From assembly GCA_025928155.1 (NCBI GenBank), contig JAICKC010000006.1, positions 1 through 64,000 on the forward strand: DNA of 64,000 nt, read 5' to 3'. The stretch is from Candidatus Saccharimonadota bacterium (GTDB taxonomy: Bacteria > Patescibacteriota > Saccharimonadia > Saccharimonadales > UBA4665). The position numbers were made by a program, and so were the translations under genes. The notes under the pieces are model-generated. The model was given only the letters and a program-made list of their open reading frames with translations, did no database searches and was not told where the DNA came from. Each line of letters opens with the position of its first letter. Within the stretch, counting starts at the first letter, position 1. Shown here piece by piece: positions 14,829 through 45,275 of this stretch.

Positions 14829-17800
14829 GTGCGCTTTAATGAGGCCATGAAGCAATTATATGGGGTTCATCTGCAGGTTTTTAAAGGTGCGATTCTAACA
14901 AGTGTAAGTGCGGTGCTTATCAGCAGCCTGCTGCTCGGGGGTACGGCCAGGGCGGCCGGGCCAACGTTTGTGCAGGTAGTGGCGGCGCAGCCGCAAACCA
15001 ACCAGAGCGCCGTAACGGTTAAGTTCACCAAAGCACAGGTGGCGGGCGACACCAACGTGCTGGCTATCGGTACAGCCGATACGACATCCAATATCACCGG
15101 CGTGACTGACAGCGCCGGCAACAGCTACGCCGTAGCGACCCCCATGACGCGCGGCTCCAGCCAGAGCCAGGCGATTTACTACGCCAAAAATATCGCGGCA
15201 GCAGTGGCTAACACCAATACCGTGACCGTTACCTTTAACACACCAGCTCGGTACGTTGATCTGCGCGCTGCCGAATACAGTGGTCTTGATGCCAGCAGCC
15301 CGCTGGATAAGTCAGCCTCGGCTACCGGCAGCAGTTCCAGCGCTTCCACGCCGTCCGTGACAACGACGTACGGCAATGAGCTGGTATTTGGCGCTGGCGA
15401 CACGTCGGGCACCTTTTCGAACTCTGGCAGCGGGTTTACCAAGCGTATTATTACCAATCCTGACTCCGACATCGTGGAAGACAAAGTGGTGAGCACCGTT
15501 GGTTCGTACAACGCCGTGGCAACGCAGAGTGGCGCTTGGGTTATGCAGGTTGCGACCTTCAAGGCCGCCGGCTCAACGCCTGACACTACGCCGCCATCGG
15601 TTCCAACCGGCCTGAATGGTAACGCTGCTTCTCAGACGCAAGTTAGCCTGTCGTGGAACGCTTCCACCGACAATGTCGGTGTAACCGGCTACAAGGTATA
15701 TCGCAATGGCACGCAGGTGGCGACCACCACTACGACCAGCTACCAGGACACTGGTCTCGCGCCAGGTACGACTTATAGCTATTCAGTTGCCGCATACGAT
15801 GCCGCCGGCAATACTTCAGCCCCTGTTACGGCCATAAATGTCACCACGCTGGCTCCCGACACCACGCCACCAAGCGCACCGGCTAACCTGAACGCCACGC
15901 CGGTTTCGACCAGCGAAATCGACCTCAGCTGGTCGGCTTCCACCGACAATGTCGGTGTAACCGGCTACAAGGTCTACCGTCAGGGTAGTCTGGTCGGTAC
16001 TAGCGCTAGCCTGAGCTACAACGACAAGAGTTTGGCCGCCGGCACCACATACAGCTATACCGTCAGCGCGGTTGATGCCGCCGGCAATGAGTCAGCTCAG
16101 TCGAGTGCCATGATAGCTACGACCGAGGCTCCCGACACCACACCGCCAACCGTCCCGACTGGCTTGAGTGTGGGCGGTGCGACAACATCGCAGCTAACAT
16201 TGAACTGGGCGGGCAGCATCGACAACGTGGGTGTCGCGGGTTATCACGTATTCCGCGGCGGTACGCAGATCGCCAGTACTACGAGCACCACCTACCAGGA
16301 CACTGGTCTGACTGCCAACACTCCCTACCTCTACACAGTTTCCGCCTTCGATGCCGCCGGCAACGAATCAGCCCAGTCGTCTGCCGCCAGCGGCACCACC
16401 CAGCAGCAAACCGGACCGAACTTCCCGTTTGTGGCCAGTGTAAGCGCTAATCACCGCTACCTGCTCGACCAGTTCGGTCATCCCTTCTTGATGGTTGGTG
16501 ATTCGCCGCACTCGCTTACCGCGAACCTCACCGAGCCTCAGGCCGACACTTACTTCGCTAACCGCCAGTCTCATGGCGTCAACGCAGCATGGATGCAGGC
16601 GCTAGTTGATGGCTACACCGGTGGCCGCAGCAACGGAGCCACGTACGACGGTATTCTGCCGTTCACTACACCCAACGATTTCTCAACGCCGAACCCAGCT
16701 TACTTCCAGCGTCTCAGCGATATGGTCAACCTGGCTGCTCAGCACGGCGTCACCGTATTCCTTGACCCAATGGACACCGCCGGCTGGCAGAGCCAGTACG
16801 AAAGTAACGGCGCCACTAAGGACTACAACTACGGCGTCTACCTCGGTACCCTCTTCAAAAATGCACCGAATATAGTCTGGATTACCGGTAACGACTACGG
16901 TATGTGGTGGAATGCCACCGATGACAACGATGTCACATCTATAGCTAAGGGCATTGCTTCAGTTGACACGCACCACCTGCAAACGGTGCAGTTGAATGGC
17001 ACCATCAGTTCCTCTCTGGATGACTCAAATTGGACGCCAATCATCAGCATGAACGGTGCCTACACCTACTACCCGACGTACGACGAAGTCCTGCATGCTT
17101 ACAACCAGATGCCGACCATGCCAGTCTACCTACAGGAAGCTAATTACGAGTTCGAAAACAACACTAATGCGAGCTACCCGACCACCAATGAGTCGCTGCG
17201 CCGTCAGAGCTGGTGGACTATTACGAGCGGCGGTGTGGCCGGCCAGATGTATGGCAACAGCTACACCTGGGACACGTCAGATTGGCCGACTGAGCAGGCT
17301 CACCTTGACACGCCAGGCGTCATCCAGATGCAGTACTGGGCCAGTCTGCTCGAAGGCCATGAGTGGTACAACCTGACACCCGACCAGACACACACTTTCC
17401 TGACCGCCGGCATGGGTACCTACGACCCCGCTCAGGATGATGTACTGCAGAGCGACTACGCCACAGCAGCAATTACGTCGGACGGCGCATTTGGTCTAGT
17501 GTATGTGCCAGCCGCTCGCACTGTTACAGTGAACTTAAGTAAGCTGTCTGGTGCTGTGACCGCTCGCTGGTTTGACCCGAGCAACAATACCTATCAGCCG
17601 ATCAGTGGCTCGCCATTTGCGGCTGGCAGCAGCTCACAGCAGTTCACTACTCCTGGCGTGAATGCGGACGGCAATAACGACTGGGTGCTGGTGCTCGACG
17701 GCACTACCGGCCCCGACACCACCGCACCAAGCGCGCCAACTAATCTGACCGCCACCGGCACTTCAGGGTCGACAGCAAGCCTCTCATGGAATGCCAGCAC

Positions 17801-19172
17801 CGATAACGTGAGCGTAGCCGGCTACAAGATTTACCGCAACGGCACTCAGGTCGGTATCGCCACTACTACGGACTATCAGGATTCCGGCCTAAGTCCGAAC
17901 ACTCCCTACAGCTATACTGTTTCGGCCTACGATTTTGCTGGTAACGAATCAGCCCAATCTACTGGAGCCACGGCTACCACGACCAATCCTGATACCACAC
18001 CGCCCAGTACTCCAACTGGTCTCGCTGCTACGGCTATTTCGTCGGGTGAAATCGACCTCAGCTGGTCGGCTGCTACCGACAGCGTCGGCGTAACCGGCTA
18101 CAAAGTTTACCGTGGCGGCGTGCTTGTAGGCACCACAGCCAACCTCAACTACAAAGACATGGGCTTAAGCGCGGGTACCACTTATAGCTACACAGTTAGC
18201 GCCGTTGACGCCGCTGGCAACGAATCAGCTCAATCAAGCACTGCAGGCGCCACCACACAGAGCCCCGACACTACGCCACCCACCGTACCAACCGGCCTGA
18301 CTGTCACGGCAACCACCAGCTCCACAGTAGGCCTGTCCTGGCTGCCGAGTACTGACAACGTAGGTGTCAGTAGCTACAAAGTCTACCGCAATGGCAACCT
18401 TGTGAGCGCGGTCGGTACGACCACCTTCACCGACACCGGCCTGACCCCAGGTAGCACCTACACCTACACCGTGAGCGCCTACGATGGATCGGGCAACGAA
18501 TCAGCCCAATCCACGCCAGCAACAGCCACGACAGGCTCGACCACGGTGACTACTCCCACGTTTGTGCAGCTAAATAGCACTACTCCTCAGACGGCTCAGA
18601 CATCAGTACCGGTGGCTTACAATCAGGCCCAGACTGCTGGTAACCTGAATATCGTAGTGATCGGTTTCTACAGCAGCACTGGCACGATAAGCTCCGTGAC
18701 GGACTCAGCCGGTAACGTCTACACGCTGGCGGCGCCGCTCACGAGGCAAAACGCGACCAGCCAGGCGATTTACTACGCTAAAAACATTAAGTCAGCTGCA
18801 GCGGGCACCAACACGGTAACGGTAACTTTCTCAGGTTCGGTACCGTATCCGGATATCCGTATCGCCGAATATGCTGGCCTTGATACCGCTAACCCATTCG
18901 ACGTTACTAGCTCGGCTGCGGGCTATCCTACCACGGCCACTAGCGGCAACGTGACAACCACGAAACCGGTAGAGCTGCTATTTGGTGCCGGCACCACTGC
19001 TGGTACGTTTACAGCCGCTGGGAGCGGGTATACTCTGCGGATAATCACCAGCCCCGATGCTGATATCGTGGAAGACCAGGTGGTGGCATCGACCGGCACT
19101 TACGCGGCCACTGCGGCGCAGAGCAGTGACGAAGTGATGCAAGTCGTAGCCTTCAAAGCTGCTGGCCAGTAG
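14829..19172 (+). CDS. Giant secreted FN3 / apiosidase-like (DUF4038) surface protein
   Basis: 1447 residues. Signal segment about 20-42. Order: a beta-domain at 42-248; three FN3 domains (252-342, 343-433, 434-526), each opening with PDTTPP and containing STDNVGV.GY.VYR; a DUF4038/GH140 (apiosidase-like) barrel at about 529-870; a collagen-binding-2-like domain to about 955; three more FN3 domains (959-1235); and a second copy of the first beta-domain (1240-1446). In the barrel, IVWITGNDYG holds the expected Asp and MPVYLQEANYE the expected Glu. GTG 14829 is the longest start; ATG 14847 is an alternative. It probably trims plant- or microbe-derived polysaccharide at the cell surface. Confidence 0.85.
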   Translation: MRFNEAMKQLYGVHLQVFKGAILTSVSAVLISSLLLGGTARAAGPTFVQVVAAQPQTNQSAVTVKFTKAQVAGDTNVLAIGTADTTSNITGVTDSAGNSYAVATPMTRGSSQSQAIYYAKNIAAAVANTNTVTVTFNTPARYVDLRAAEYSGLDASSPLDKSASATGSSSSASTPSVTTTYGNELVFGAGDTSGTFSNSGSGFTKRIITNPDSDIVEDKVVSTVGSYNAVATQSGAWVMQVATFKAAGSTPDTTPPSVPTGLNGNAASQTQVSLSWNASTDNVGVTGYKVYRNGTQVATTTTTSYQDTGLAPGTTYSYSVAAYDAAGNTSAPVTAINVTTLAPDTTPPSAPANLNATPVSTSEIDLSWSASTDNVGVTGYKVYRQGSLVGTSASLSYNDKSLAAGTTYSYTVSAVDAAGNESAQSSAMIATTEAPDTTPPTVPTGLSVGGATTSQLTLNWAGSIDNVGVAGYHVFRGGTQIASTTSTTYQDTGLTANTPYLYTVSAFDAAGNESAQSSAASGTTQQQTGPNFPFVASVSANHRYLLDQFGHPFLMVGDSPHSLTANLTEPQADTYFANRQSHGVNAAWMQALVDGYTGGRSNGATYDGILPFTTPNDFSTPNPAYFQRLSDMVNLAAQHGVTVFLDPMDTAGWQSQYESNGATKDYNYGVYLGTLFKNAPNIVWITGNDYGMWWNATDDNDVTSIAKGIASVDTHHLQTVQLNGTISSSLDDSNWTPIISMNGAYTYYPTYDEVLHAYNQMPTMPVYLQEANYEFENNTNASYPTTNESLRRQSWWTITSGGVAGQMYGNSYTWDTSDWPTEQAHLDTPGVIQMQYWASLLEGHEWYNLTPDQTHTFLTAGMGTYDPAQDDVLQSDYATAAITSDGAFGLVYVPAARTVTVNLSKLSGAVTARWFDPSNNTYQPISGSPFAAGSSSQQFTTPGVNADGNNDWVLVLDGTTGPDTTAPSAPTNLTATGTSGSTASLSWNASTDNVSVAGYKIYRNGTQVGIATTTDYQDSGLSPNTPYSYTVSAYDFAGNESAQSTGATATTTNPDTTPPSTPTGLAATAISSGEIDLSWSAATDSVGVTGYKVYRGGVLVGTTANLNYKDMGLSAGTTYSYTVSAVDAAGNESAQSSTAGATTQSPDTTPPTVPTGLTVTATTSSTVGLSWLPSTDNVGVSSYKVYRNGNLVSAVGTTTFTDTGLTPGSTYTYTVSAYDGSGNESAQSTPATATTGSTTVTTPTFVQLNSTTPQTAQTSVPVAYNQAQTAGNLNIVVIGFYSSTGTISSVTDSAGNVYTLAAPLTRQNATSQAIYYAKNIKSAAAGTNTVTVTFSGSVPYPDIRIAEYAGLDTANPFDVTSSAAGYPTTATSGNVTTTKPVELLFGAGTTAGTFTAAGSGYTLRIITSPDADIVEDQVVASTGTYAATAAQSSDEVMQVVAFKAAGQ

Positions 19173-30394: not shown

Positions 30395-30994
30395 CTAAGG
30401 CTGAAGCTGTAGCTCACGGATTTCAGCGGTTTCCAAATGAGGTAGGCTGCGATGTGCCGAGCCATCAACTTTTTGGAATGCTGTTTGTAGGATCTGCAGA
30501 GTGTCACCATGAGAAACTAGCAGTATATTTTTGTCCATATATGTTGCTTCCAGCCGATTGATAAATGACGTGACGCGTTCTGTAACTTCCTCGATTGACT
30601 CAACGCCATTATTTTTATGTGTCGCGTCAACGATGTCATCATTCCAAACCAACTGGTAGTTGCCATGATCGCTCATTTCGTATTCTCCGAAATTACGTTC
30701 GCGCAAGGAGTGTGTGATTTGGACTTGTGCACAGCTTAGCTGTTGGCGAACGATCTCGGCGGTTTCTAACGCACGCGAGAAGTCGGAGCTGAAAATGATA
30801 GTTGTATCGTCTAAGTGTGTTTGTTGAGCAGAGGAGAGTGCTTGTTGGCTGCCCGTTGGGCTAAGCGCGTAATCCGAGTGTGTTCCATTTTCCGGATGAC
30901 TAATGATTAAGCCCGCTACGTTAGCCTTACTTTGACCGTGGCGCATTACGTAGTAGTGGTTGCGCAACGTACTAAGGTTTGCGAGATGATTCAT
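30395..30994 (-). CDS. Histidine phosphatase (phosphoglycerate-mutase-like)
   Basis: 199 residues. YYVMRHGQSKAN is the catalytic RHG block (phospho-His), FSSDFSRALETAEIV the second block with Arg, ERNFGEYE the acid block, and LLVSHGDTLQILQ the second catalytic His. Length and order fit the cobC/GpmB-like branch, which removes phosphate from small metabolites. TATAAT 6 nt before ATG 30994 suggests a leaderless message. A single-gene module between repeats e and f. Confidence 0.87.
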   Translation of the reverse strand: MNHLANLSTLRNHYYVMRHGQSKANVAGLIISHPENGTHSDYALSPTGSQQALSSAQQTHLDDTTIIFSSDFSRALETAEIVRQQLSCAQVQITHSLRERNFGEYEMSDHGNYQLVWNDDIVDATHKNNGVESIEEVTERVTSFINRLEATYMDKNILLVSHGDTLQILQTAFQKVDGSAHRSLPHLETAEIRELQLQP

Positions 30995-33811: not shown

Positions 33812-35002
33812 ATGAGGAGTGATTTTAAAGCATTCAAGAGCGAAGAGATTGTAGATGCTCCGTTAATTATCGATGCTGTTTATGAGGCTCTTGGCGGTAG
33901 TATGGTCTACGAGCCATTGAGCAGAATGTTCAAGTGCTCTAATCAAGGTGGATTTCGCGCAGTTAAGAATGGTGAGAGTGGCTATAAATTTATCATCCTG
34001 TATTCATCGCTAGATGATCACGATTGGCCTGACTCGATCGATATTCACAGTGGAACAGTTGTCTACTATGGAGACAACAAACGTCCAGGTAACAGTATCC
34101 ATAGCACTCCTATCGGTGGTAATAAGATACTGAGGAACTATTTTGATTTTCTTCATAGCGGCTGTAGAGGGGACATCTCACCGATCTTCTTTTTCACTAA
34201 AGGCGCAAAAGCTAGGGACGTAGTATTCCGCGGGTTACTCGTACCTGGTGCAACTCATATTAGCGAGAATGAAGATCTGGTAGCAATTTGGAAGAGTAAG
34301 GAAGGAAAGCGCTTTCAAAACTATCGTGCGATCTTTACTGTACTGGATGCAGGAACAATCCATCGTAAATGGATAGATAGCTTAGCGAGTGGTAAGCCTA
34401 GCTCGCAATATGCCCCAAAGAGTTGGCTAGAGTGGAAGGCGTCTAGCTCACCGCCTAGGGCTCTCATCACTGAGCGGATAGCGACCCACAGAAGCAAAAG
34501 CGAGCAGCTTCCTAGTACTGCGTCGGACACGTACTTGCTTGAACAGATTCACACTAGTTTCACCAGTGATCCTTTTAGCTTTGAGAAGTGTGCCGCCGAA
34601 CTTGTTAAGCTTATGGATAAAAATGTTGTCTCGTATGAATTAACTAGAAAGAGCAGAGATGGAGGTATTGATGCTCATGCGGAATATCGAATAGGCCTCT
34701 CGTCGAATAGTATAAAGGTGAGTTGTGCTATAGAGGCGAAATGTTACCGTCCTGACACGCCAGTTGGCGTAAAAGGTACCTCTAGATTAATTTCGCGATT
34801 AAAAAATCGTGAGTTTGGCGTGCTGGTGACTACTTCCTATGTAGATCAACAAGCGTACAAGGAAATTATTGAAGATGGTCACCCCGTTATTATCATGTCC
34901 GGTGTAGATATCGTTAATATCTTGAAATCCTCCGGTGTCAGCTCACCCGAGCTTCTTACGCAATGGCTAAAGAGCTTCTTGTCTAATGCTGGGTCAGGAT
35001 GA
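33812..35002 (+). CDS. AspBHI/Mrr-like restriction endonuclease
   Basis: 396 residues. N-terminal part (about 120-225) has FRGLLVPGATHISENEDLVA and RFQNYRAIFTVLD, resembling the AspBHI-type N-terminal domain of modification-sensing endonucleases. The C-terminal domain (about 245-390) is Mrr-like: FEKCAAELVKLM, catalytic SRDGGIDAHAEY (D-G-G-I-D) and CAIEAKCY (E-x-K, usually Q/E-x-K). So the PD-(D/E)XK active site is complete. TATAAT 8 nt before ATG suggests a leaderless message. It converges with the receiver-like gene (20-bp overlap). Cutting of foreign or differently methylated DNA is the likely role. Confidence 0.85.
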   Translation: MRSDFKAFKSEEIVDAPLIIDAVYEALGGSMVYEPLSRMFKCSNQGGFRAVKNGESGYKFIILYSSLDDHDWPDSIDIHSGTVVYYGDNKRPGNSIHSTPIGGNKILRNYFDFLHSGCRGDISPIFFFTKGAKARDVVFRGLLVPGATHISENEDLVAIWKSKEGKRFQNYRAIFTVLDAGTIHRKWIDSLASGKPSSQYAPKSWLEWKASSSPPRALITERIATHRSKSEQLPSTASDTYLLEQIHTSFTSDPFSFEKCAAELVKLMDKNVVSYELTRKSRDGGIDAHAEYRIGLSSNSIKVSCAIEAKCYRPDTPVGVKGTSRLISRLKNREFGVLVTTSYVDQQAYKEIIEDGHPVIIMSGVDIVNILKSSGVSSPELLTQWLKSFLSNAGSG

Positions 35003-36209
35003 CTCGCCCCGGCCTTGAGGTATAGGATGCTATCCGCTGCTGCAATTCAATAACCACATTATCCCTAAACCTAAACCATATGTCGTTGGTGGAAATTTCA
35101 GCTACTTCTTCCTTGGTCTTCGCGACTATAGATGCGAGATTTATGATTAATCTCCAGCTGTCATTTTCAAGAGTAAACGAACCGTTGAGTTCGTAGGTCT
35201 TGAGCTTACCAGATGTATGACTGTTGGCGCTTGGCAAAAGTACTCCGTGCACAAAGTGGTGAAAATCATTATTATTTTGCGCGACATCGCATAATGCCGT
35301 CACGTCTATCATGACTGCGGTTCTTTCTGTTCCCTTGACTAGTCCGTCACAGTAGTCTTTGTCCACTTTGATCACGCAACCTGGACCGACGCGACCACCT
35401 GTATTGGGATTGATTGTGAGAGTTGCATTTATGTCATTCATTGCTTGAGCATCACATCGTGCTGCACTGTTGATCACGGCATTGTAGCTAGAATAATCCT
35501 CACCGACCAAGGCTGTGTCGATGGTACCCTTTAGGGAATCATTCAGTGTTAGCAAGGCATGTAGGCTTGTGTCATTTGAAGTACTGCCAGATTGCGCGAA
35601 GCTAAGCGCATTTATTTTTCCTGATACGGTATCTTGGGTTTCATTTGCAGAAATAAGATCACGCAAGAAAGATGAAGTAACTCCACTGATCTTTCTTTCC
35701 CAAAAAGTAAAAAGTCCAAATTTGTCAGCATCTTTGAGACCTGCGTTAAGACGATCATTTATGGCTGACGAGAGGTAGCTCGTCGGGGTGCTCGGGTCTG
35801 CACACTCATTCTTGTCTATTACGATAGGCTCAATACATGGATAAAAGTCACTTCCACGCTCCTTGAGTAGTTTTATGAATTCTTGCCCTAAAGTTGTAAG
35901 CTGTGCAGACCATATGACTAGGACATAAAAACTACTTGGTTCTACAACGCGATTCAAGCAGGTTAGGGCAAGGTTGGCTTTTTCGGTTTCGCTTCCTGCG
36001 CCTATCAGTGGATCAAGCCCTAAGTCTAAAAAAACTAGCCTAGCGTTAGGGCATTTAGGAACGTCTGTTAGGTCACCTACCCCAGTAAAGTGGTAAAAAT
36101 ATGAAGACACCCTTTCTTTATTCAGTGCCTTACTAATTGCAAACCCTTGATCTTCATCATTATCTATAATTACAACGCGGTTTAGTTCGGATAGTGACTG
36201 GAGATCCAT
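34983..36209 (-). CDS. Receiver-like protein of the restriction cluster
   Basis: 408 residues. The first 125 resemble a response-regulator receiver: VVIIDNDEDQGFAISKAL gives the acidic pair, ARLVFLDLGLD the phospho-acceptor-like Asp, and VLVIWSAQ the Ser/Thr strand. The Lys strand is unclear, so it may be atypical. The remaining 280 residues form a domain I do not recognise, with no DNA-binding motif. It starts 6 bp after the tandem GHKL ATPase stop and is surely co-transcribed. This suggests the ATPase, with a kinase-like C-terminal domain, signals to or through it. Confidence 0.72.
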   Translation of the reverse strand: MDLQSLSELNRVVIIDNDEDQGFAISKALNKERVSSYFYHFTGVGDLTDVPKCPNARLVFLDLGLDPLIGAGSETEKANLALTCLNRVVEPSSFYVLVIWSAQLTTLGQEFIKLLKERGSDFYPCIEPIVIDKNECADPSTPTSYLSSAINDRLNAGLKDADKFGLFTFWERKISGVTSSFLRDLISANETQDTVSGKINALSFAQSGSTSNDTSLHALLTLNDSLKGTIDTALVGEDYSSYNAVINSAARCDAQAMNDINATLTINPNTGGRVGPGCVIKVDKDYCDGLVKGTERTAVMIDVTALCDVAQNNNDFHHFVHGVLLPSANSHTSGKLKTYELNGSFTLENDSWRLIINLASIVAKTKEEVAEISTNDIWFRFRDNVVIELQQRIASYTSRPGRVILTQH

Positions 36210-36215
36210 ATCAGA

Positions 36216-38387
36216 CTATCTCTCTTTTTTGAGTATTAATTCAATGATCGCGCCATTGGCAAACTCGTTAGGTAGCTCGTCGACTTCGCTTGCACTTCGC
36301 TGTATGATTTTGCCCCCGTGCATACGCATGGTTTCACTTGCTATATGCAGGCCTAGGCCTTGCCCTCCGATAACTTTATCGGTAAAGAAGGGCTGTAATG
36401 CGTCTTCGAAAGGAATACTGAAGCCGTTCCCGTTGTCTGCAATGACTATTCCAACCTCATGCTCATATTCTTTAAGCGAAACAAATATCTTAGGCTCTTC
36501 TATCTCGTATTTATTGAGCCAATATATTGAGTTGTCAAAGATGTTGATCATTACTCCGACTATATTGTTTAACGATAGTTTTGCCTCTGTGTCTTGATGG
36601 TTGGCGTATTGCCTAATAAGGTCTATCTTATGGGCCTTTAATCTGAACTCTACATTCATCAGAGCAACGTCTACGGCCTTTTTTACACTTGTCTGCTTTA
36701 TGTCAGTTGAAGCAATCGCTGCGTAGCTTTTAACGATGTCGGAGATACCTTCAATTTGGATCCTCAAATTGTCAATATCAACTTCTGGAAGCTCAATGCT
36801 ACCTCTTAGCCGGGATAGTCTCTTGTCTACCTCATGCACAACGATTCCAAAGCTTAGACCCATGTTCGAGCTTTTAAGCAATATCTCGTTCATCCTTATG
36901 TACTGTTCTTCAATCTCGTCGAGTTGCACCACGCATCCTCTCAAAAAGCCTTCTTTGCCTGCGAAGTCTACGCCAGCAAGATTTTCGCTTAGACTCTCTT
37001 TAAGATCCTCGACAGCATCTACGACTCGCTTTTCTGTGACTTTTTTGCCGGCCGATCGAACTTTTTTGATGGCTTCCTTATCCTTGATTCTTACCGTGCC
37101 AATAAGATCGACAACGTATCTTACGGCGTCGGCGAATGTTTTGTATGCTTCATTGTCTACGAAGCCTTCTCGGTTAGTCTTCTCGATCAGTCCCCGACTA
37201 GACTTTCGGTCTAAGGAAGCTGCACCAAGGATATTGCGGTTGCCAATTTGCCTTACTGGGTTATTGATACGCCTCTTGTCTAAATCAAGCCAGTCATTTC
37301 CCGCCTCACCGTAGTCGTATATTCTTAGCCGATCGCGATATACTCTAATGCCGCCATTTTTTGCTAGATAGCTCTTTAACTGGGGTGATATTTCAGGTAT
37401 GAAACGGAGTGTGTCACTGTCTAGGTCAAATACGTATGCGTAGAATTCTATTGTCCCCACGCCCTTATCAGTCAAGTTGACGCCCTCAGGCATCTCTCCG
37501 GAGCCTCTGCCGACTTCAATCTTATCTTTTTTGTCTTTCTGAATATCCGCTAGAGAGATCATTCTTGACGGAACATCAATATCCTCCCAAGGTTTGAATT
37601 TCATTTCAAACATAGTGATTGCATCACCTTCAACACGGCAATGAACTTCCCAGAGTGCTGCACGATGGATATCCTCGAGAGTGATTCCTTTCTGCTTCCA
37701 CTTGCTTTCTCGATCTTTGTCATCTAGCTCAAGCTCGACAGAAGGTGTGAATGAGTCATCACTATCAAATGGAGACATTAGCGTGACCACATCTTCTACA
37801 AAATCCTTATACATCTTTTGTGTCCAATTTTGCTTGAGGCCACTAATAGTTATCTGTGTCCCATGGTTGTCACCTATGAATAACTCAGGCTTCCGTTCTT
37901 CAACAATAATTCCTGCCTCATCCAGGTACTTGTTGGCTTCAAAATCTTCCCAGTCAATGAAGATACGAATTTCCTTAGGAGCATTTGAGCTTCTAGTTAT
38001 CAATTCAACTTTACTTCCAATCTTATGTGCGCCAAAGCGCCCCACACCCTTTTCTCCGATTGGAAGACGTTTTGGACGTATAAAGTCAAAGTCGAACGTG
38101 GCTTGTTCACCCTCTTCGAGAAGCTTGTTTTTAAAATCGGCACCAGGTTCAAGCCATACATTCAATACCGTATCAAGAGTCATTCCAACTCCATCGTCCC
38201 AAATGGATATTTTTCCTTTTTTGCTGTCATTAATGTTTACACAGCTAATTAGGCATCTTGACGCGTCGGCATCGTAGGCGTTTTTCACAAGCTCGCTTAT
38301 GGCGATGTTCTCGTTTCGAATCAACTGATCGCCTAATTGAAGCAACATGCGTGCTCTTGGTCTAAATACGTTGGTAGGGGTTGTCAT
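36216..38387 (-). CDS. Tandem GHKL ATPase (MORC/Hsp90-like plus histidine-kinase-like)
   Basis: 723 residues with two Bergerat folds. N-terminal: AISELVKNAYDADA (N box), ISIWDDGVGMTLD (G1), GEKGVGRFGAHKIG (G2), as in Hsp90/MutL/MORC ATPases. The middle carries an S5-like transducer and a helical region. C-terminal: NNIVGVMINIFDNSIYWL, VIADNGNGFS, and GGQGLGLHIASETMRMHGG, a kinase-type HATPase with all ATP-lid glycines. The His-box before it (FGIVVHEVDKRLSRLRG) resembles a dimerisation helix with a phospho-accepting His. ATGA overlap with the methyltransferase shows co-translation. It probably couples DNA state to the receiver-like partner. Confidence 0.82.
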   Translation of the reverse strand: MTTPTNVFRPRARMLLQLGDQLIRNENIAISELVKNAYDADASRCLISCVNINDSKKGKISIWDDGVGMTLDTVLNVWLEPGADFKNKLLEEGEQATFDFDFIRPKRLPIGEKGVGRFGAHKIGSKVELITRSSNAPKEIRIFIDWEDFEANKYLDEAGIIVEERKPELFIGDNHGTQITISGLKQNWTQKMYKDFVEDVVTLMSPFDSDDSFTPSVELELDDKDRESKWKQKGITLEDIHRAALWEVHCRVEGDAITMFEMKFKPWEDIDVPSRMISLADIQKDKKDKIEVGRGSGEMPEGVNLTDKGVGTIEFYAYVFDLDSDTLRFIPEISPQLKSYLAKNGGIRVYRDRLRIYDYGEAGNDWLDLDKRRINNPVRQIGNRNILGAASLDRKSSRGLIEKTNREGFVDNEAYKTFADAVRYVVDLIGTVRIKDKEAIKKVRSAGKKVTEKRVVDAVEDLKESLSENLAGVDFAGKEGFLRGCVVQLDEIEEQYIRMNEILLKSSNMGLSFGIVVHEVDKRLSRLRGSIELPEVDIDNLRIQIEGISDIVKSYAAIASTDIKQTSVKKAVDVALMNVEFRLKAHKIDLIRQYANHQDTEAKLSLNNIVGVMINIFDNSIYWLNKYEIEEPKIFVSLKEYEHEVGIVIADNGNGFSIPFEDALQPFFTDKVIGGQGLGLHIASETMRMHGGKIIQRSASEVDELPNEFANGAIIELILKKER

Positions 38388-39607
38388 CTAATATTTGCCT
38401 TTATCTCTGTGGCTATAGCTCTAGCTAGAAGTACGGGGACGGCATTGCCGATCTGTTTGTATCTCGAGTTCCGTGGGCCTTCGAATTTATAATCGTCGGG
38501 GAATGTCTGCAGTCGAGCGGCCTCCCGGATACTCAGAGAGCGGTTTTGCTTCTGATCAGGATGTATGTAGTAGTGCCCATCTCGTCCGATATGAGCAACG
38601 ATGGTGTGCGAGCCGCTCGCTTTCTCGTCTACGACTTTAAAACGATCCAGAAAACTACTTTGGTTCTTGTGAGTTTTAAGGTTGTCAGGGAGATTGTTGT
38701 ATCTAAGGTTATCTCCCTTGTCCCTTAACTCTACCGCATATCTGTATATTTCTAAATCACGAGCGTTATGCGGCCTTGTTCGGTGGTCGATCAGAAGGTT
38801 GAAATCTTTTGAGGTAACCCCAAGCTCTTCAAGCAGTAGATTACGATCCTTTCTCTCGGTCAGTTCATGTCCGCCTCCTGCTTGGAGCGAAGGAAGATCA
38901 GAAAGGACGTCCTTTACAATGTAATCTCTTTCAATCGGTGAGGGCAGCGGATAAGAACTCAGCCCAGATTTATCATTCCACCCTATAAGGATAACGCGGC
39001 GACGGTTTTGGGGGACACCGTAGTCAACTGCATTTAAGATCTTGTAGTCAGTTTCATAGCCTGCGCGCTTCATGAGTTTACGCATATCCTTGAGGTATTG
39101 GCCGCCACCGGCCGACACGAGGCCTGGAACATTTTCGAAGACGAGTACTTTAGGTTGGAATGCTTTCAAGAACTCAACATAATATTTGTACAGATAGTTT
39201 CGGTCGTCCTTTTTCATGCGATTGATGTCACGGGCACGGCCAATGTATGAATATGCTTGGCATGGAGGACCGCCAACGACTAGGTCAATTCGCCGGTCTC
39301 CGACGATCTGTTTTAGCTTAGCTATTGTATCTTCGTAGTTATCATCAATTTTTTCACATATAACGGAATCTGCCACATTCTGCATCTTATATCCTTTTAT
39401 AATTTCGTCGAGTGTAATGTCGCCCATGATGTAGCTTCTATAAACGTCCAGTAGGTTACGCTTACGCAGCTCGTGGTAGATCATCCTAGTGCGTAGGGTG
39501 TTTGCTGCATGCTTATCCATCTCTACGTGGCCTATCATTGTATATCCGGACTGAATAAAACCTTCCGAGAGGCCACCAGCACCGGCAAACAGATCAATCA
39601 CGTTCAT
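38384..39607 (-). CDS. C5 cytosine DNA methyltransferase (Dcm family)
   Basis: 407 residues. Motif I DLFAGAGGLSEGF, motif IV VVGGPPCQAYS with the catalytic Cys, motif VI VFENVPG, motif VIII PQNRRRVILIG and motif X QIGNAVPVLLA are all present, so it should be active. The target-recognition region is about residues 230-345. It probably protects host DNA from the AspBHI/Mrr-like nuclease, or marks the site the nuclease reads. First gene of the three-gene minus-strand run. Confidence 0.93.
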   Translation of the reverse strand: MNVIDLFAGAGGLSEGFIQSGYTMIGHVEMDKHAANTLRTRMIYHELRKRNLLDVYRSYIMGDITLDEIIKGYKMQNVADSVICEKIDDNYEDTIAKLKQIVGDRRIDLVVGGPPCQAYSYIGRARDINRMKKDDRNYLYKYYVEFLKAFQPKVLVFENVPGLVSAGGGQYLKDMRKLMKRAGYETDYKILNAVDYGVPQNRRRVILIGWNDKSGLSSYPLPSPIERDYIVKDVLSDLPSLQAGGGHELTERKDRNLLLEELGVTSKDFNLLIDHRTRPHNARDLEIYRYAVELRDKGDNLRYNNLPDNLKTHKNQSSFLDRFKVVDEKASGSHTIVAHIGRDGHYYIHPDQKQNRSLSIREAARLQTFPDDYKFEGPRNSRYKQIGNAVPVLLARAIATEIKANIR

Positions 39608-39704
39608 GTTATGAGTTTACCAGGCCGCCATATACGCCGTCCAGGGCATAAGCTTTTCCCTTCGAATTATAGGATTATAGTTTCGCCGGTTTTGTCTCGA
39701 TTTG

Positions 39705-40835
39705 CTATATATTTCCCCCGTTCTGGTGATGGCTGCGCATTCTGGAGTGTTTACTAATTAGCTTTATAAGCTCATCCTCCTGCTCGTATGCACGCAGCCG
39801 TCCGCTAAGATAACCAAGTCGATAGTGTATCCCATCGCTCATGAGTCGCCAGTTGGTGTCCTCGAGTGTTGTGCTAATGGTTTTCTTAAGTATCTTTGTA
39901 CTGTCGTAATCATCGCGAGAGGGCTTACTATCGAGGCAGCTAAAGCCAATGGTGACATCACGCCCTATTTCCGGCCTATCCAGGCTGAACTCTATGTAGT
40001 CAGCTTTTTCTAGCTCTGGAGCGAGCGTGGTCGAAAGCTCGGTAATCTTGAGTTTCTTCAGAGCTGCCACGGCATCGTAGATGTGCTTATTGTCTTCCTT
40101 TTCTTTCCATTCTCTGCCAAGCTGTGCCATCCCCTCGTAACGCGACTTGCCATCGCGAAGCTCTTGCCGTGCCTTCTCATCGTGGAGGCAGTAGATCATC
40201 CTATCCCTTTCAAAGTCTGAGTCGGCCTCGCGTTCCTTGACTGTGAGGTCTAACCTGTCTTTGTAAGTATGGCCGCATGCTGGGCAGGTATAGGTGGTAG
40301 TGAGTAACTTTTCTTTGCGGGTGTCTTTTTCTATCATTTCAGCTTTACACTTTGGGCAATAAGTTTTGTGGCGTTCTAGTTGTGAGCCATCATACCAACA
40401 CGCAGTGTTCTTTTTGCAGTGAGGGCAGGTAAGCGTAAATAGAACTTCTTCGGGTTCGCCCAAAGAGTCCTTATGATGAAGCATCTTGCCCGTAATGCGC
40501 AGCCCGGTTTTACCGCAGTGTCGACACACTGGTTCGTTGGTGAGACGGGCAGTGGCAATCTGCGCGTCCTTGGCTTTGTCTTGGGCCATCATTTCATCTA
40601 CGCGCTTACTGCGCATGTCATATCGATCGAGTAAGTCATTACCCACAAAGACCACATAGAAAAGGTTTAGGTATAGCGTTGCGCGGTCTGAGTCTTTTGG
40701 CTCATCGGGTAGAATCCTGAAAAACTCATGATACGCCCTCTCGAAATACTCCTGGTCTATGCGGCCCGACATGACCGTCGTGCGGTCATAGATACCTTCA
40801 TAGAACGAGCGGTCCCTAAGATGGGTGTATGTCAC
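39705..40835 (-). CDS. Multi-zinc-ribbon protein, unknown function
   Basis: 376 residues. Four CxxC pairs (CRHCGKTG, CPHCKK, CPKCKAE, CPACGHTY) between about residues 105 and 200 form two zinc ribbons. Flanks are charged and helical. It lies between the XRE controller (44 bp upstream) and the methyltransferase (97 bp downstream), in the same direction. A nucleic-acid-binding or recognition role in the restriction cluster is an inference from position and zinc ribbons. No family recognised. Confidence 0.7.
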   Translation of the reverse strand: MTYTHLRDRSFYEGIYDRTTVMSGRIDQEYFERAYHEFFRILPDEPKDSDRATLYLNLFYVVFVGNDLLDRYDMRSKRVDEMMAQDKAKDAQIATARLTNEPVCRHCGKTGLRITGKMLHHKDSLGEPEEVLFTLTCPHCKKNTACWYDGSQLERHKTYCPKCKAEMIEKDTRKEKLLTTTYTCPACGHTYKDRLDLTVKEREADSDFERDRMIYCLHDEKARQELRDGKSRYEGMAQLGREWKEKEDNKHIYDAVAALKKLKITELSTTLAPELEKADYIEFSLDRPEIGRDVTIGFSCLDSKPSRDDYDSTKILKKTISTTLEDTNWRLMSDGIHYRLGYLSGRLRAYEQEDELIKLISKHSRMRSHHQNGGNI

Positions 40836-40879
40836 ACAAGTACCTCATCGACATAGGTCGTAATTTACTTTCTGAGTGT

Positions 40880-41095
40880 CTAGAACTCGATGAGCCCTGA
40901 CGCTTTGACTTTTAGGGCTTTGCCTAACTTCTCGATGTTTTTTATCGAGGGATTGCGTACGCCACGCTCAATGCCGGAGATGTAAGTACGGTCTAGGCCG
41001 GTCATCTCGCCGAGTTTCTCTTGTGAGAGCCCGGCTTCAGTCCTCAACTGTCTAATTTTCTTACCAAGTTTTTGTTGTGCGCTTGTTCTTGCCAT
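40880..41095 (-). CDS. XRE-family regulator, C-protein-like
   Basis: 71 residues: KLGKKIRQLRTEAGLSQEKL, GEMTGLDRTYISGIERGVRN is a canonical five-helix XRE domain with nothing else. The size and place at the head of a restriction-modification cluster match controller (C) proteins that time nuclease expression. Its promoter and a start-codon-spanning inverted repeat are just upstream. Confidence 0.88.
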   Translation of the reverse strand: MARTSAQQKLGKKIRQLRTEAGLSQEKLGEMTGLDRTYISGIERGVRNPSIKNIEKLGKALKVKASGLIEF

Positions 41096-43110: not shown

Positions 43111-43564
43111 ATTCTTCAAGCAAAGGGCGATTGCGTACCAGCCGGGACTGGCGATAATCTTTCGCTCTGTGCCCGCTGCCATTATGCTGAACCAGCTGCT
43201 CTACTGGCACATGAAGGGCTCAAGAAAAGACGGGTTTATTTTTAAGACTGAAGTGGAGATGTTTTTCGAGACCGGACTAACTAGAACTATGCAGTCCGGT
43301 GCGATAAAGAAGCTTCTGGAGTATGGGTTTATAGATTATAAACTTGCAGGCATACCGGCAAAGAAATGCTATAGGGTCAACTTCCTCAACGTACAAAACC
43401 AACTACCAAGATTGAAGGAAACCTGCAATCTTAAATACCTAAATCCGCCAGTAACTTATGACGATAACCTGCGACCTATTACAGAGAATACCCATAGGAC
43501 TACTACACAGAGTACCTCATCAATAGGCAGCATTCTCGAGGGAAAGCGGTATACTAAGAAGTGA
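43079..43564 (+). CDS. Winged-helix replication-initiator-like protein
   Basis: 161 residues. PAAIMLNQLLYWHMKGSRKD, GFIFKTEVEMFFETGLTRTM and YGFIDYKLAGIPAKKCYRV follow the winged-helix pattern of plasmid and phage replication or helper proteins. The C-terminal third is Thr/Ser-rich and probably disordered. It overlaps the preceding gene and is joined to the recombinase by TGATG. Confidence 0.72.
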   Translation: MSQAHQKKIDKFFKQRAIAYQPGLAIIFRSVPAAIMLNQLLYWHMKGSRKDGFIFKTEVEMFFETGLTRTMQSGAIKKLLEYGFIDYKLAGIPAKKCYRVNFLNVQNQLPRLKETCNLKYLNPPVTYDDNLRPITENTHRTTTQSTSSIGSILEGKRYTKK

Positions 43565-45240
43565 TGAGTATGAGTCACAATAACAGTTCTATACGGTACA
43601 TAGCGTATGTGCGAAAGTCTGAAGAGCGCAAAGAGCGACAGGAGCTTTCACACCCAGCACAAATAGTTGAGATTAAACAGCGTTTTTCTGACCTCAATAT
43701 TATCAAATGGATGGAGCCGGAAAGTAAAAGCGCATTTACACCTGGACGCCCAATATTTAATCAAATGCTGGATATGATTGAACGTGGCGAGGCGGATGGG
43801 ATTATCGCTTGGCATCCAAATAGGATTGCTCGGAATGAGTATGACGCTGCTCGTGTTACCTATGATCTCCGTGGGCCACTTAAGGATCTGAAGTTTTGCT
43901 CTTACAACTTTGACAACTCACCTGAAGGCATCATGATGCTGCAAATGGTTATGAATCAATCGCAATATGAATCGTCAAAGCAGGGAAAGGACGTTAGGCG
44001 TGGAATGACCCAGAAGGCCTCAACCGGCGAGCGCCCTGGCGTGGTCCCGATTGGCTATATGAAAGCTCCAGTATTGAATGACCAGGGCGGTATTATTAGG
44101 AACAAGGATAAAATCGTTACTAAAACGGTGGATGATCCTGAACGAATTGAGCAGGTTAAGCGTATGTGGCAGATGCTCTTGTCAGGGCTGTACACACCAC
44201 GCCAGATTCGTAAGATTGCCAATGAGGAGTGGAGCTTTATCCTGAAAAGAACGGCTAAAACTGGCGGAGGCCCCATCGGGCTAAGCTCTTTGTATCGGTT
44301 ATTCAACAATCCTTTTTATGCAGGATATATTCGTCACAATGGTGAGCTCTATGAAGGGGGCCATAACCCCATCATTTCACTCAAGGACTACGATTATGCG
44401 CAAACCATTCTAGGCAAGCGAGGGAAGCCTCGCACCGGCGTGAACGGCTACGCCTACACCGGGCTAATCAAGTGTGGTGAATGCGGCTGTTCCATAGTGG
44501 GAAAGACCAATCAAAAGTTTGTGAAGCGTGAGGGCAAAATGGTTGCCTATATCCACTACTTCTGTACGCGTAAGAGTGATAAGCGGCCCTGCAATCAATC
44601 GGTCTACACAAGCGTAGATGATATGGAAAAGCAGATTGATGCCGAACTAGCCAAGTATACGATCCTGCCAGAATTCCGGGATTTAGCTGTGGAGATACTG
44701 AACCGCAGTCACAAGGCCGAGATGGTCGATAGGGCAAAGACATATGCCACGCAGCAAGTTAGACGGAAACAAGTTCAAGAGCAGCTTGATGGTCTTGTGG
44801 ACATGCGGACGCGTAACTTACTGGATGATGATGAGGAGTACATTAGCCAGCACACTAGGCTCAAAGCGGAATTAGCGCGGGTAGATGAGGGCCTCCGTAG
44901 CACAGAGACTCGGGCAGAGAGCTGGCTTGAGCTGACCGAGAGAGCTTTTGATTTTGCTACATATGCACGTGCCCATTTCCAAGAGGGCGATCTACTGACA
45001 AAACGTGATATCTTGATGACTTTGGGTGAGAACTTTTTGCTTAAGGACAAAAAACTCACCCTGCAACAGAGTGAGTGGCTGGTACCGATAGGCAAATACT
45101 ATCCAGCTATCGAGGCTGAGTACCTAAGAAGGGTAGGAACCAACCAAAAAGCCTCTCCTAAGGTGAAGGAAGAGGCTTTGGTTTCAGTTTCGGAATCTTG
45201 GAGGGCCAGGAGGGACTCGAACCCTCGACATTCTGCTTAA
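43564..45240 (+). CDS. Large serine recombinase (integrase)
   Basis: 558 residues. Resolvase domain with YIAYVRKSEE (catalytic Ser, about residue 17) and IIAWHPNRIARNEYDA (Arg pair). Then a recombinase domain (QMLLSGLYTPRQIRKIANEE, LFNNPFYAGYI), a zinc ribbon (KCGECGCS and YFCTRKS..RPC) and a coiled coil (about 390-470). It cuts att sites by the 5'-phosphoserine route and should move this island. The frame runs into tRNA-Lys: the last residues (WRARRDSNPRHSA) are antisense tRNA sequence and the TAA stop lies in the anticodon arm. Confidence 0.93.
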   Translation: MSMSHNNSSIRYIAYVRKSEERKERQELSHPAQIVEIKQRFSDLNIIKWMEPESKSAFTPGRPIFNQMLDMIERGEADGIIAWHPNRIARNEYDAARVTYDLRGPLKDLKFCSYNFDNSPEGIMMLQMVMNQSQYESSKQGKDVRRGMTQKASTGERPGVVPIGYMKAPVLNDQGGIIRNKDKIVTKTVDDPERIEQVKRMWQMLLSGLYTPRQIRKIANEEWSFILKRTAKTGGGPIGLSSLYRLFNNPFYAGYIRHNGELYEGGHNPIISLKDYDYAQTILGKRGKPRTGVNGYAYTGLIKCGECGCSIVGKTNQKFVKREGKMVAYIHYFCTRKSDKRPCNQSVYTSVDDMEKQIDAELAKYTILPEFRDLAVEILNRSHKAEMVDRAKTYATQQVRRKQVQEQLDGLVDMRTRNLLDDDEEYISQHTRLKAELARVDEGLRSTETRAESWLELTERAFDFATYARAHFQEGDLLTKRDILMTLGENFLLKDKKLTLQQSEWLVPIGKYYPAIEAEYLRRVGTNQKASPKVKEEALVSVSESWRARRDSNPRHSA

Positions 45241-45275
45241 GAGGCAGACGCTCTAACCAGCTGAGCTACTGGCCC
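45199..45275 (-). tRNA. tRNA-Lys (anticodon CTT), integration site
   Basis: Acceptor GGGCCAG/CTGGCCC, D-arm GCTC/GAGC type, anticodon stem TCTGC/GCAGA with loop CTCTTAA, T-arm GAGGG/CCCTC with loop TTCGAGT, then T and encoded CCA (T at the discriminator place is unusual for Lys). Its 3' half overlaps the recombinase frame. Confidence 0.93.

What the first reader, a model, noticed from the sequence alone, without database searches (positions are those of the whole stretch)
33812..41095. Methylase + tandem GHKL ATPase + receiver-like protein + AspBHI/Mrr-like nuclease: a candidate new defence system
Seen: a cytosine C5 methyltransferase overlaps (ATGA) a 723-residue protein with two Bergerat ATPase folds (one MORC/Hsp90-like, one histidine-kinase-like), which is followed after 6 bp by a receiver-like protein, and then a convergent modification-sensing-type endonuclease. 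Known: bacterial MORC/MutL-like ATPases occur in restriction-modification loci, and two-component-like proteins occur in some phage-defence systems. Inferred: the ATPase could sense DNA state and signal through the receiver-like protein to license the nuclease. I know of no described system with exactly these four parts.
Basis: partly seen in the sequence, partly recalled or inferred. Interest (0 to 1): 0.85.

Follow-up and report, generated by a model that had tools for sequence, protein, structure and literature searches.

The report
Kinase-linked DNA methylase-nuclease defence island
A mobile island carries a DNA-marking enzyme, a two-protein signalling pair and a DNA-cutting enzyme; the first three form a set already described across many bacteria (function unproven), while the cutter is one of several swappable nucleases, so this is a divergent version of a known but poorly understood anti-DNA system.

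Summary
In detail: an intact C5 methyltransferase (MT), a 723-aa double-GHKL protein, a receiver protein and a convergent AspBHI-type endonuclease lie at 33812-39607. A C-protein-like HTH and a zinc-ribbon protein precede them. MT + GHKL histidine kinase (HK) + receiver (RR) is not new. Bellieny-Rabelo et al. 2021 (PMC8011034) described this R-M-linked, two-component-like module (HEF_HK/Response_reg_2). The window pair is a divergent homologue that neither Pfam model detects. Across 80 loci from many phyla the RR directly follows the HK in 75 and a C5 methyltransferase is present in 71. The kinase His (97/97), the receiver Asp (79/79) and both ATPase sites are invariant, so a real phosphorelay is likely. 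The nuclease slot varies: AspBHI-type, EcoRII-C, MvaI/BcnI, HNH, MZA. The window nuclease is a full-length AspBHI homologue with its m5C pocket and active site intact. It sits at 4/80 HK loci; it occurs in 5/60 HK genomes, each time near an RR, against 2/950 background genomes. So the four-part set recurs above chance but is not obligate. How a 5mC-cutting nuclease coexists with an intact C5 methyltransferase, and whether phosphorylation gates it, are unproven. Verdict: new variant of a known, uncharacterised kind.

The parts
33812..35002 (+). AspBHI-type m5C-dependent endonuclease (SRA-like RE_AspBHI_N + Mrr_cat), 396 aa
   Evidence: Pfam; PADLOC mREase_II PDLC03203 464 bits; full-length match to solved AspBHI 4OC8, 3e-104; m5C pocket and D287/E308/K310 intact
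34983..36209 (-). Receiver (RR-like) protein, 408 aa: REC domain 10-135, helical linker, C-terminal domain with invariant G277, C307-D308 and near-invariant R399
   Evidence: AF2 model pLDDT 90.4, Foldseek PDB response regulators, conservation in 79 homologues
36216..38387 (-). paraMORC-like histidine kinase, 723 aa: N-terminal GHKL (HATPase_c_3), middle domain, DHp with H518-E519, C-terminal CA (HATPase_c)
   Evidence: Pfam; profile matches across DHp+CA of HK crystal structures; H518 and both ATP sites invariant in 97 homologues
38384..39607 (-). DNA cytosine-C5 methyltransferase, 407 aa, catalytic motifs intact
   Evidence: Pfam 2.9e-68; PADLOC DrmMII PDLC02649 531 bits; PCQ/ENV/QxRxR/GNAV present
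39705..40835 (-). 376-aa zinc-ribbon protein, no relative in any fetched locus; membership in the system uncertain
   Evidence: weak zinc-ribbon Pfam hits, CxxC pairs; phmmer finds only the window's own copy
40880..41095 (-). 71-aa HTH resembling R-M controller (C) proteins; similar HTHs occur at other MT-HK-RR loci
   Evidence: sequence; phmmer relatives in 11 of 80 HK loci
43561..45240 (+). Large serine recombinase of the island; its 3' end overlaps the tRNA-Lys gene
   Evidence: Resolvase + Recombinase + Zn_ribbon_recom
45199..45275 (-). tRNA-Lys(CTT), probable integration site
   Evidence: ARAGORN; Rfam; in relatives this tRNA precedes folD without these cassette genes beside it

Best explanation
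This is an R-M-type defence island, probably brought in at tRNA-Lys by a large serine recombinase. Its core is MT-HK-RR, a divergent version of the published two-component-like R-M module. Most likely mechanism: the MT marks host DNA at its own motif (shown: intact catalytic motifs). The soluble HK uses its N-terminal GHKL/MORC-like module as an ATP-driven DNA or protein clamp that senses invading or abnormally marked DNA (inferred), autophosphorylates H518 and passes the phosphate to D62 of the RR (inferred from invariant residues and pairing). The phosphorylated RR, through its C-terminal CD-motif domain, switches on or releases the locus's nuclease or alters MT/nuclease balance (inferred). 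Here the nuclease is an AspBHI-type enzyme that cuts beside 5-methylcytosine (inferred from pocket conservation). It can be tolerated only if the MT motif lies outside its recognition context or if the HK/RR pair gates it.
For: Linkage in 80 genome loci from many phyla: RR adjacent 75/80, C5 MT 71/80, Vsr or HhH-GPD glycosylase 52/80; also on viral contigs. HK: H518 and both GHKL sites invariant in 97 homologues; profile covers DHp+CA of real kinases and the HSP90 N-domain. RR: D16 0.96, D62 1.00, S/T101 0.96, K133 0.97 in 79 homologues; model. Homology to bona fide HEF_HK proteins 5e-71 to 2e-86, same HK-RR layout; published linkage. Nuclease: AspBHI homologue with pocket and catalytic residues intact. 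Nuclease enriched in HK genomes: 5/60 versus 2/950, Fisher p 1.2e-5, or 4/60 and p 1.5e-4 at a matched threshold. Island.
Against: No biochemical or phage data here or, as far as I found, in the literature. PF19191 and PF19192 do not match the window proteins. The nuclease is absent from most HK loci, and among nuclease-first finds (five plasmid records and two background genomes) none had HK/RR in the stretch fetched. The nuclease is a separate convergent transcription unit. Function of the RR C-terminal domain is unknown.
Confidence: 0.45

Rival explanations
1. The nuclease is an independent Type IIM/IV-like restriction enzyme that merely sits beside the MT-HK-RR module in a defence island; HK/RR do not control it.
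For: Nuclease absent from 76/80 HK loci; elsewhere it sits with MZA/Z1 genes or C5 MTs without HK/RR; convergent orientation, own transcription unit; MspJI itself lies next to a C5 MT gene thought inactive.
Against: 5/60 HK genomes against 2/950 background genomes carry it, each time near an RR gene; in L054 it starts 12 bp after the RR. Defence-island clustering could explain part of this.
Confidence: 0.35
2. HK and RR are themselves the ATPase-dependent restriction effector (as GHKL proteins of the BbrUII/HgiDII type are annotated), and the nuclease is an add-on.
For: The N-terminal GHKL matches NF050001 BbrUII/HgiDII family at 1.4e-17 and a relative matches PADLOC REase_II; several loci show MT-HK-RR plus Vsr or glycosylase with no recognisable nuclease.
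Against: No nuclease motif or fold found in HK or RR; the NF050001 match covers only the GHKL part and is far below its cut-off of 550 bits.
Confidence: 0.13
3. HK/RR is an ordinary soluble two-component system that sets transcription of the R-M genes.
For: Invariant phosphorelay residues.
Against: The RR has no recognised DNA-binding domain; a separate C-protein-like HTH is present.
Confidence: 0.07

Closest known systems
HEF_HK / Response_reg_2 two-component-like module linked to R-M systems (Bellieny-Rabelo et al. 2021, PMC8011034)
   Same: HATPase_c_3 + DHp-like His-Glu + HATPase_c kinase, followed by a receiver protein, near a C5 methyltransferase, Vsr and varied REases; HK homologous at 5e-71 to 2e-86; both receiver families carry a C-terminal CD motif
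   Different: Window HK and RR are missed by PF19191/PF19192; the nuclease here is AspBHI-type, which that paper's text does not name
paraMORC / prokaryotic MORC R-M loci (Iyer et al. 2008, PMC2292703)
   Same: N-terminal GHKL ATPase in loci with cytosine methylases, Vsr, AIPR and nucleases
   Different: paraMORC1-5 as described are not said to have the C-terminal histidine-kinase core or a receiver partner; the word 'receiver' does not occur in the paper
AspBHI / LpnPI (MspJI family, Type IIM)
   Same: Full-length homology, m5C pocket and catalytic residues
   Different: Convergent with an MT-HK-RR cassette; specificity untested; N63 of AspBHI is Ser here (MspJI also has Ser)
MZA and DISARM
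   Same: MZA genes (MzaB-E) adjoin the same MT-HK-RR cassette in about a dozen relatives; MT resembles DrmMII
   Different: No MzaB-E or other DISARM genes found among the cassette proteins and nine further window proteins scanned

Membership tests
HEF_HK/Response_reg_2 module | HK with HATPase_c_3 (N) and HATPase_c (C) | tested here: met
HEF_HK/Response_reg_2 module | DHp-like helix with conserved His followed by Glu/Asp | tested here: met
   H518 97/97, E519 93/97; profile aligns through DHp of HK structures
HEF_HK/Response_reg_2 module | Match to Pfam PF19191 (HEF_HK) | tested here: not met
   no hit at E<=1; control members in Acinetobacter hit
HEF_HK/Response_reg_2 module | Receiver with acidic pair, Asp, Thr/Ser, Lys | tested here: met
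HEF_HK/Response_reg_2 module | Match to Pfam PF19192 (Response_reg_2) | tested here: not met
   hhalign to true members only 49% probability over the receiver
HEF_HK/Response_reg_2 module | HK-RR adjacency and nearby C5 methylase | tested here: met
   window; 75/80 and 71/80 relatives
paraMORC | N-terminal GHKL with S5 domain in R-M context | tested here: inconclusive
   GHKL motifs and R-M context met; S5 fold not modelled
AspBHI/MspJI family | SRA-like N-terminal domain plus Mrr-type catalytic domain, homologous over full length | tested here: met
AspBHI/MspJI family | m5C pocket W69, D71, Y82, Y83, G84, D85, R/K87 | tested here: met
   equivalents W, D, Y, Y, G, D, K in the window enzyme
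AspBHI/MspJI family | Cleavage dependent on 5mC | not testable with these tools
   needs biochemistry
DISARM | drmA helicase, drmB, drmC next to the methylase | tested here: not met
   no drm hit other than the DrmMII-like MT among cassette proteins and nine further window proteins
MZA | MzaB-E genes | tested here: not met
   absent from the cassette proteins scanned; present beside relatives
C-protein-controlled Type II R-M | C protein binding C-boxes and driving REase | tested here: inconclusive
   C-protein-like HTH present; C-boxes not tested; promoter scan at chance level

The most novel reading that the evidence does not exclude
A phosphorelay-gated restriction system: a MORC-type DNA clamp fused to a histidine-kinase core detects foreign or wrongly marked DNA and, through a receiver with a new effector domain, licenses a 5mC-dependent nuclease that would otherwise be dangerous in a cell carrying its own C5 methyltransferase; the nuclease is interchangeable among relatives.
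Probability: 0.2. Interest if true: 0.85.

Novelty: new variant of a known kind. Interest (0 to 1): 0.5.

Why it matters
Two-component phosphorelay is, to my knowledge, a rare logic in restriction-modification. A widespread HK-RR pair tied to C5 methylases and swappable nucleases, with every phosphorelay residue conserved, makes a testable case that some R-M systems are switched on by signalling rather than only blocked by methylation. It also poses a concrete puzzle: an intact C5 methyltransferase beside a nuclease that should cut 5mC DNA.

Tried and rejected
(1) 'Entirely new four-part system': rejected after PMC8011034 and the nuclease counts. (2) Single-sequence AlphaFold of the RR: useless (pLDDT 35.9); redone with 76 homologues. 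(3) RR C-terminal domain as PemK/MazF-like, suggested by Foldseek viral hits named PemK-like: no profile support, though only seven near-identical PemK sequences were used and two earlier attempts used wrongly extracted sequences; left open. (4) Sequence-profile search for a solved relative of that domain: none. (5) att direct repeat of the island: no exact repeat of 12 bp or more elsewhere in the window. (6) RR search in plasmids by tblastn: no match, although relatives are there, because the family is too divergent.
Full report
WHAT IS THERE. On the minus strand, in order of transcription: a 71-aa C-protein-like HTH (41095-40880), a 376-aa zinc-ribbon protein (40835-39705), a C5 methyltransferase MT (39607-38384), a 723-aa double-GHKL protein HK (38387-36216) and a 408-aa receiver protein RR (36209-34983). 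A 396-aa endonuclease NUC is on the plus strand (33812-35002) and meets the RR tail to tail. It did not mention the HTH and the zinc-ribbon gene, which its interval contains.

THE PROTEINS. MT keeps the C5-methylase motifs (F-G-GG, PCQ, ENV, QNRRR, GNAV); its best PADLOC model is a DISARM methylase model, DrmMII, but no other DISARM gene was found among the proteins scanned. HK has HATPase_c_3 at 27-152 and HATPase_c at 612-700. A profile of the family aligns to the DHp+CA core of true histidine kinases and, separately, to the HSP90 N-terminal domain. In 97 homologues H518 is invariant, as are both ATP sites (E32, N36, D64-G66-G68, G111-K113; N615, N619, D651-G653-G655, G677, G679). RR has no Pfam hit, but in 79 homologues D16 (0.96), D/N17, D62 (1.00), S/T101 (0.96) and K133 (0.97) form the canonical receiver site. 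The C-terminal domain has invariant G277 and C307-D308 and near-invariant R399 and G401. The AlphaFold2 model built on 76 sequences is confident, and Foldseek returns response regulators for the receiver part. No solved relative of the C-terminal domain was found.

THE NUCLEASE. NUC matches solved AspBHI (4OC8) over its full length at 3e-104. The residues that LpnPI/AspBHI/MspJI work assigns to the flipped-5mC pocket (PMC4499157) are W, D, Y, Y, G, D, K at the equivalent positions. AspBHI N63 is Ser, as in MspJI. D287, E308 and K310 of the active site are present in all 13 distinct homologues compared. It is therefore most likely a true modification-dependent enzyme; its exact recognition context is unknown.

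IS THE SET KNOWN? Yes, for three parts. PMC8011034 describes HATPase_c_3 + HEF_HK + HATPase_c kinases linked (91.6% of 644 regions) to Response_reg_2 receivers, with C5 methylases, Vsr and type II nucleases such as EcoRII-C, MvaI_BcnI and HNH_2. I fetched bona fide PF19192 members from Acinetobacter. They have the same HK-RR pair near a C5 methylase, their HKs match the window family profile at 5e-71 to 2e-86, and two of the three receivers carry the same kind of C-terminal CD motif. But the window HK and RR fail both Pfam models, and so do the relatives I scanned. I therefore file it as a divergent sister of that module, not a member by model. HK and RR have no PADLOC hit. DefensePredictor (PMC13092281) lists 'HATPase' and 'REC' among the abbreviations of a figure of predicted, unvalidated systems; I could not see whether it is this pair.

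CO-OCCURRENCE. One scan of GTDB contigs kept the 80 best of 538 relatives. RR lies directly after HK in 75/80. A C5 MT is within the fetched stretch in 71/80 and directly upstream in 38. Vsr or an HhH-GPD glycosylase is present in 52/80. Neighbouring effectors vary: MzaB-E type genes (about 12 loci), EcoRII-C (5), MvaI_BcnI (5), HNH_2 (5), MrcB_N-AAA (3), and single HpaII and XhoI enzymes. NUC is at 4/80: L054, 12 bp after RR; L074; L089; L099. Genome-wide, 60 of the HK genomes were searched and 5 carry NUC. Four copies are at the HK locus. The fifth (G351) has an RR 5' of NUC and a C5 MT 3' of it on a contig that starts inside the RR. Background: 2 of about 950 genomes from three classes, not counting genomes chosen for having NUC. 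Fisher p is 1.2e-5, or 1.5e-4 at a matched E-value threshold. The background is not matched for taxonomy, and defence genes cluster anyway, so this shows recurrence, not obligate partnership. From the nuclease side, none of five plasmid loci or two background genomes had HK/RR in the stretch fetched, though three of the seven had a C5 MT.

THE PUZZLE. An AspBHI-type enzyme cuts beside 5mC, and the MT beside it looks active. For MspJI the adjacent C5 MT gene was judged inactive (PMC3874153), and that review notes that such nucleases are compatible with MTs whose motif lacks the neighbouring base they need. So either motifs are compatible here or the nuclease is gated. This is what makes the locus worth an experiment.

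THE ISLAND. A large serine recombinase (43561-45240) ends inside tRNA-Lys (45199-45275). In a related genome (G208) the gene matching window 30395-30994 (80% identity) lies about 1.1 kb from the same tRNA, against about 14 kb here; in other relatives the tRNA lies close to folD and none of the cassette genes was found nearby. In 295 genomes of the same class no other RR was found, and a full-length HK was found only in the window's own genome. The best HK relatives are about 40% identical and come from unrelated phyla. Horizontal acquisition is the simplest reading.

MECHANISM. Shown: intact catalytic or signalling residues in all four proteins, conserved pairing and order. Inferred: phosphotransfer H518 to D62, DNA sensing by the GHKL/MORC-like module, and control of nuclease or methylase by the RR C-terminal domain. 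I put about 0.85 on the identity of the parts and on the three-part core being a functional module, and about 0.35 on HK-RR controlling the nuclease; the combined statement gets 0.45.

Noticed in passing
L063:1-14573 (OY282369.1): Four HK copies and part of a fifth, with RR copies or fragments between them, lie in tandem in one 14.6-kb stretch of a metagenome chromosome labelled Cenarchaeum: possible tandem amplification of the pair.
   Followed up: no
window 14829-19172: 1447-aa protein with Apiosidase-like catalytic domain and repeated fibronectin III domains, a large putative polysaccharide-degrading enzyme in a small-genome bacterium.
   Followed up: no
L203 (G156:C5:110000-127000): A genome of the same family carries an AspBHI-type nuclease directly after a C5 methylase, downstream of AIPR and DUF4420 genes of MZA type, without HK/RR.
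   Followed up: partly
L045, L050, L052, L053, L082, L118, L122: An HhH-GPD (EndoIII/MutY-like) glycosylase follows the RR where Vsr is often found, perhaps as the alternative repair of 5mC deamination.
   Followed up: partly
L093, L095, L097, L102: A sub-group with short RRs (241-265 aa) is followed by a conserved protein (cluster c14) that looks like a metallo-beta-lactamase fold by eye.
   Followed up: no
viral contigs L125-L139: MT-HK-RR cassettes also lie on IMG/VR viral contigs, suggesting carriage by prophages.
   Followed up: partly
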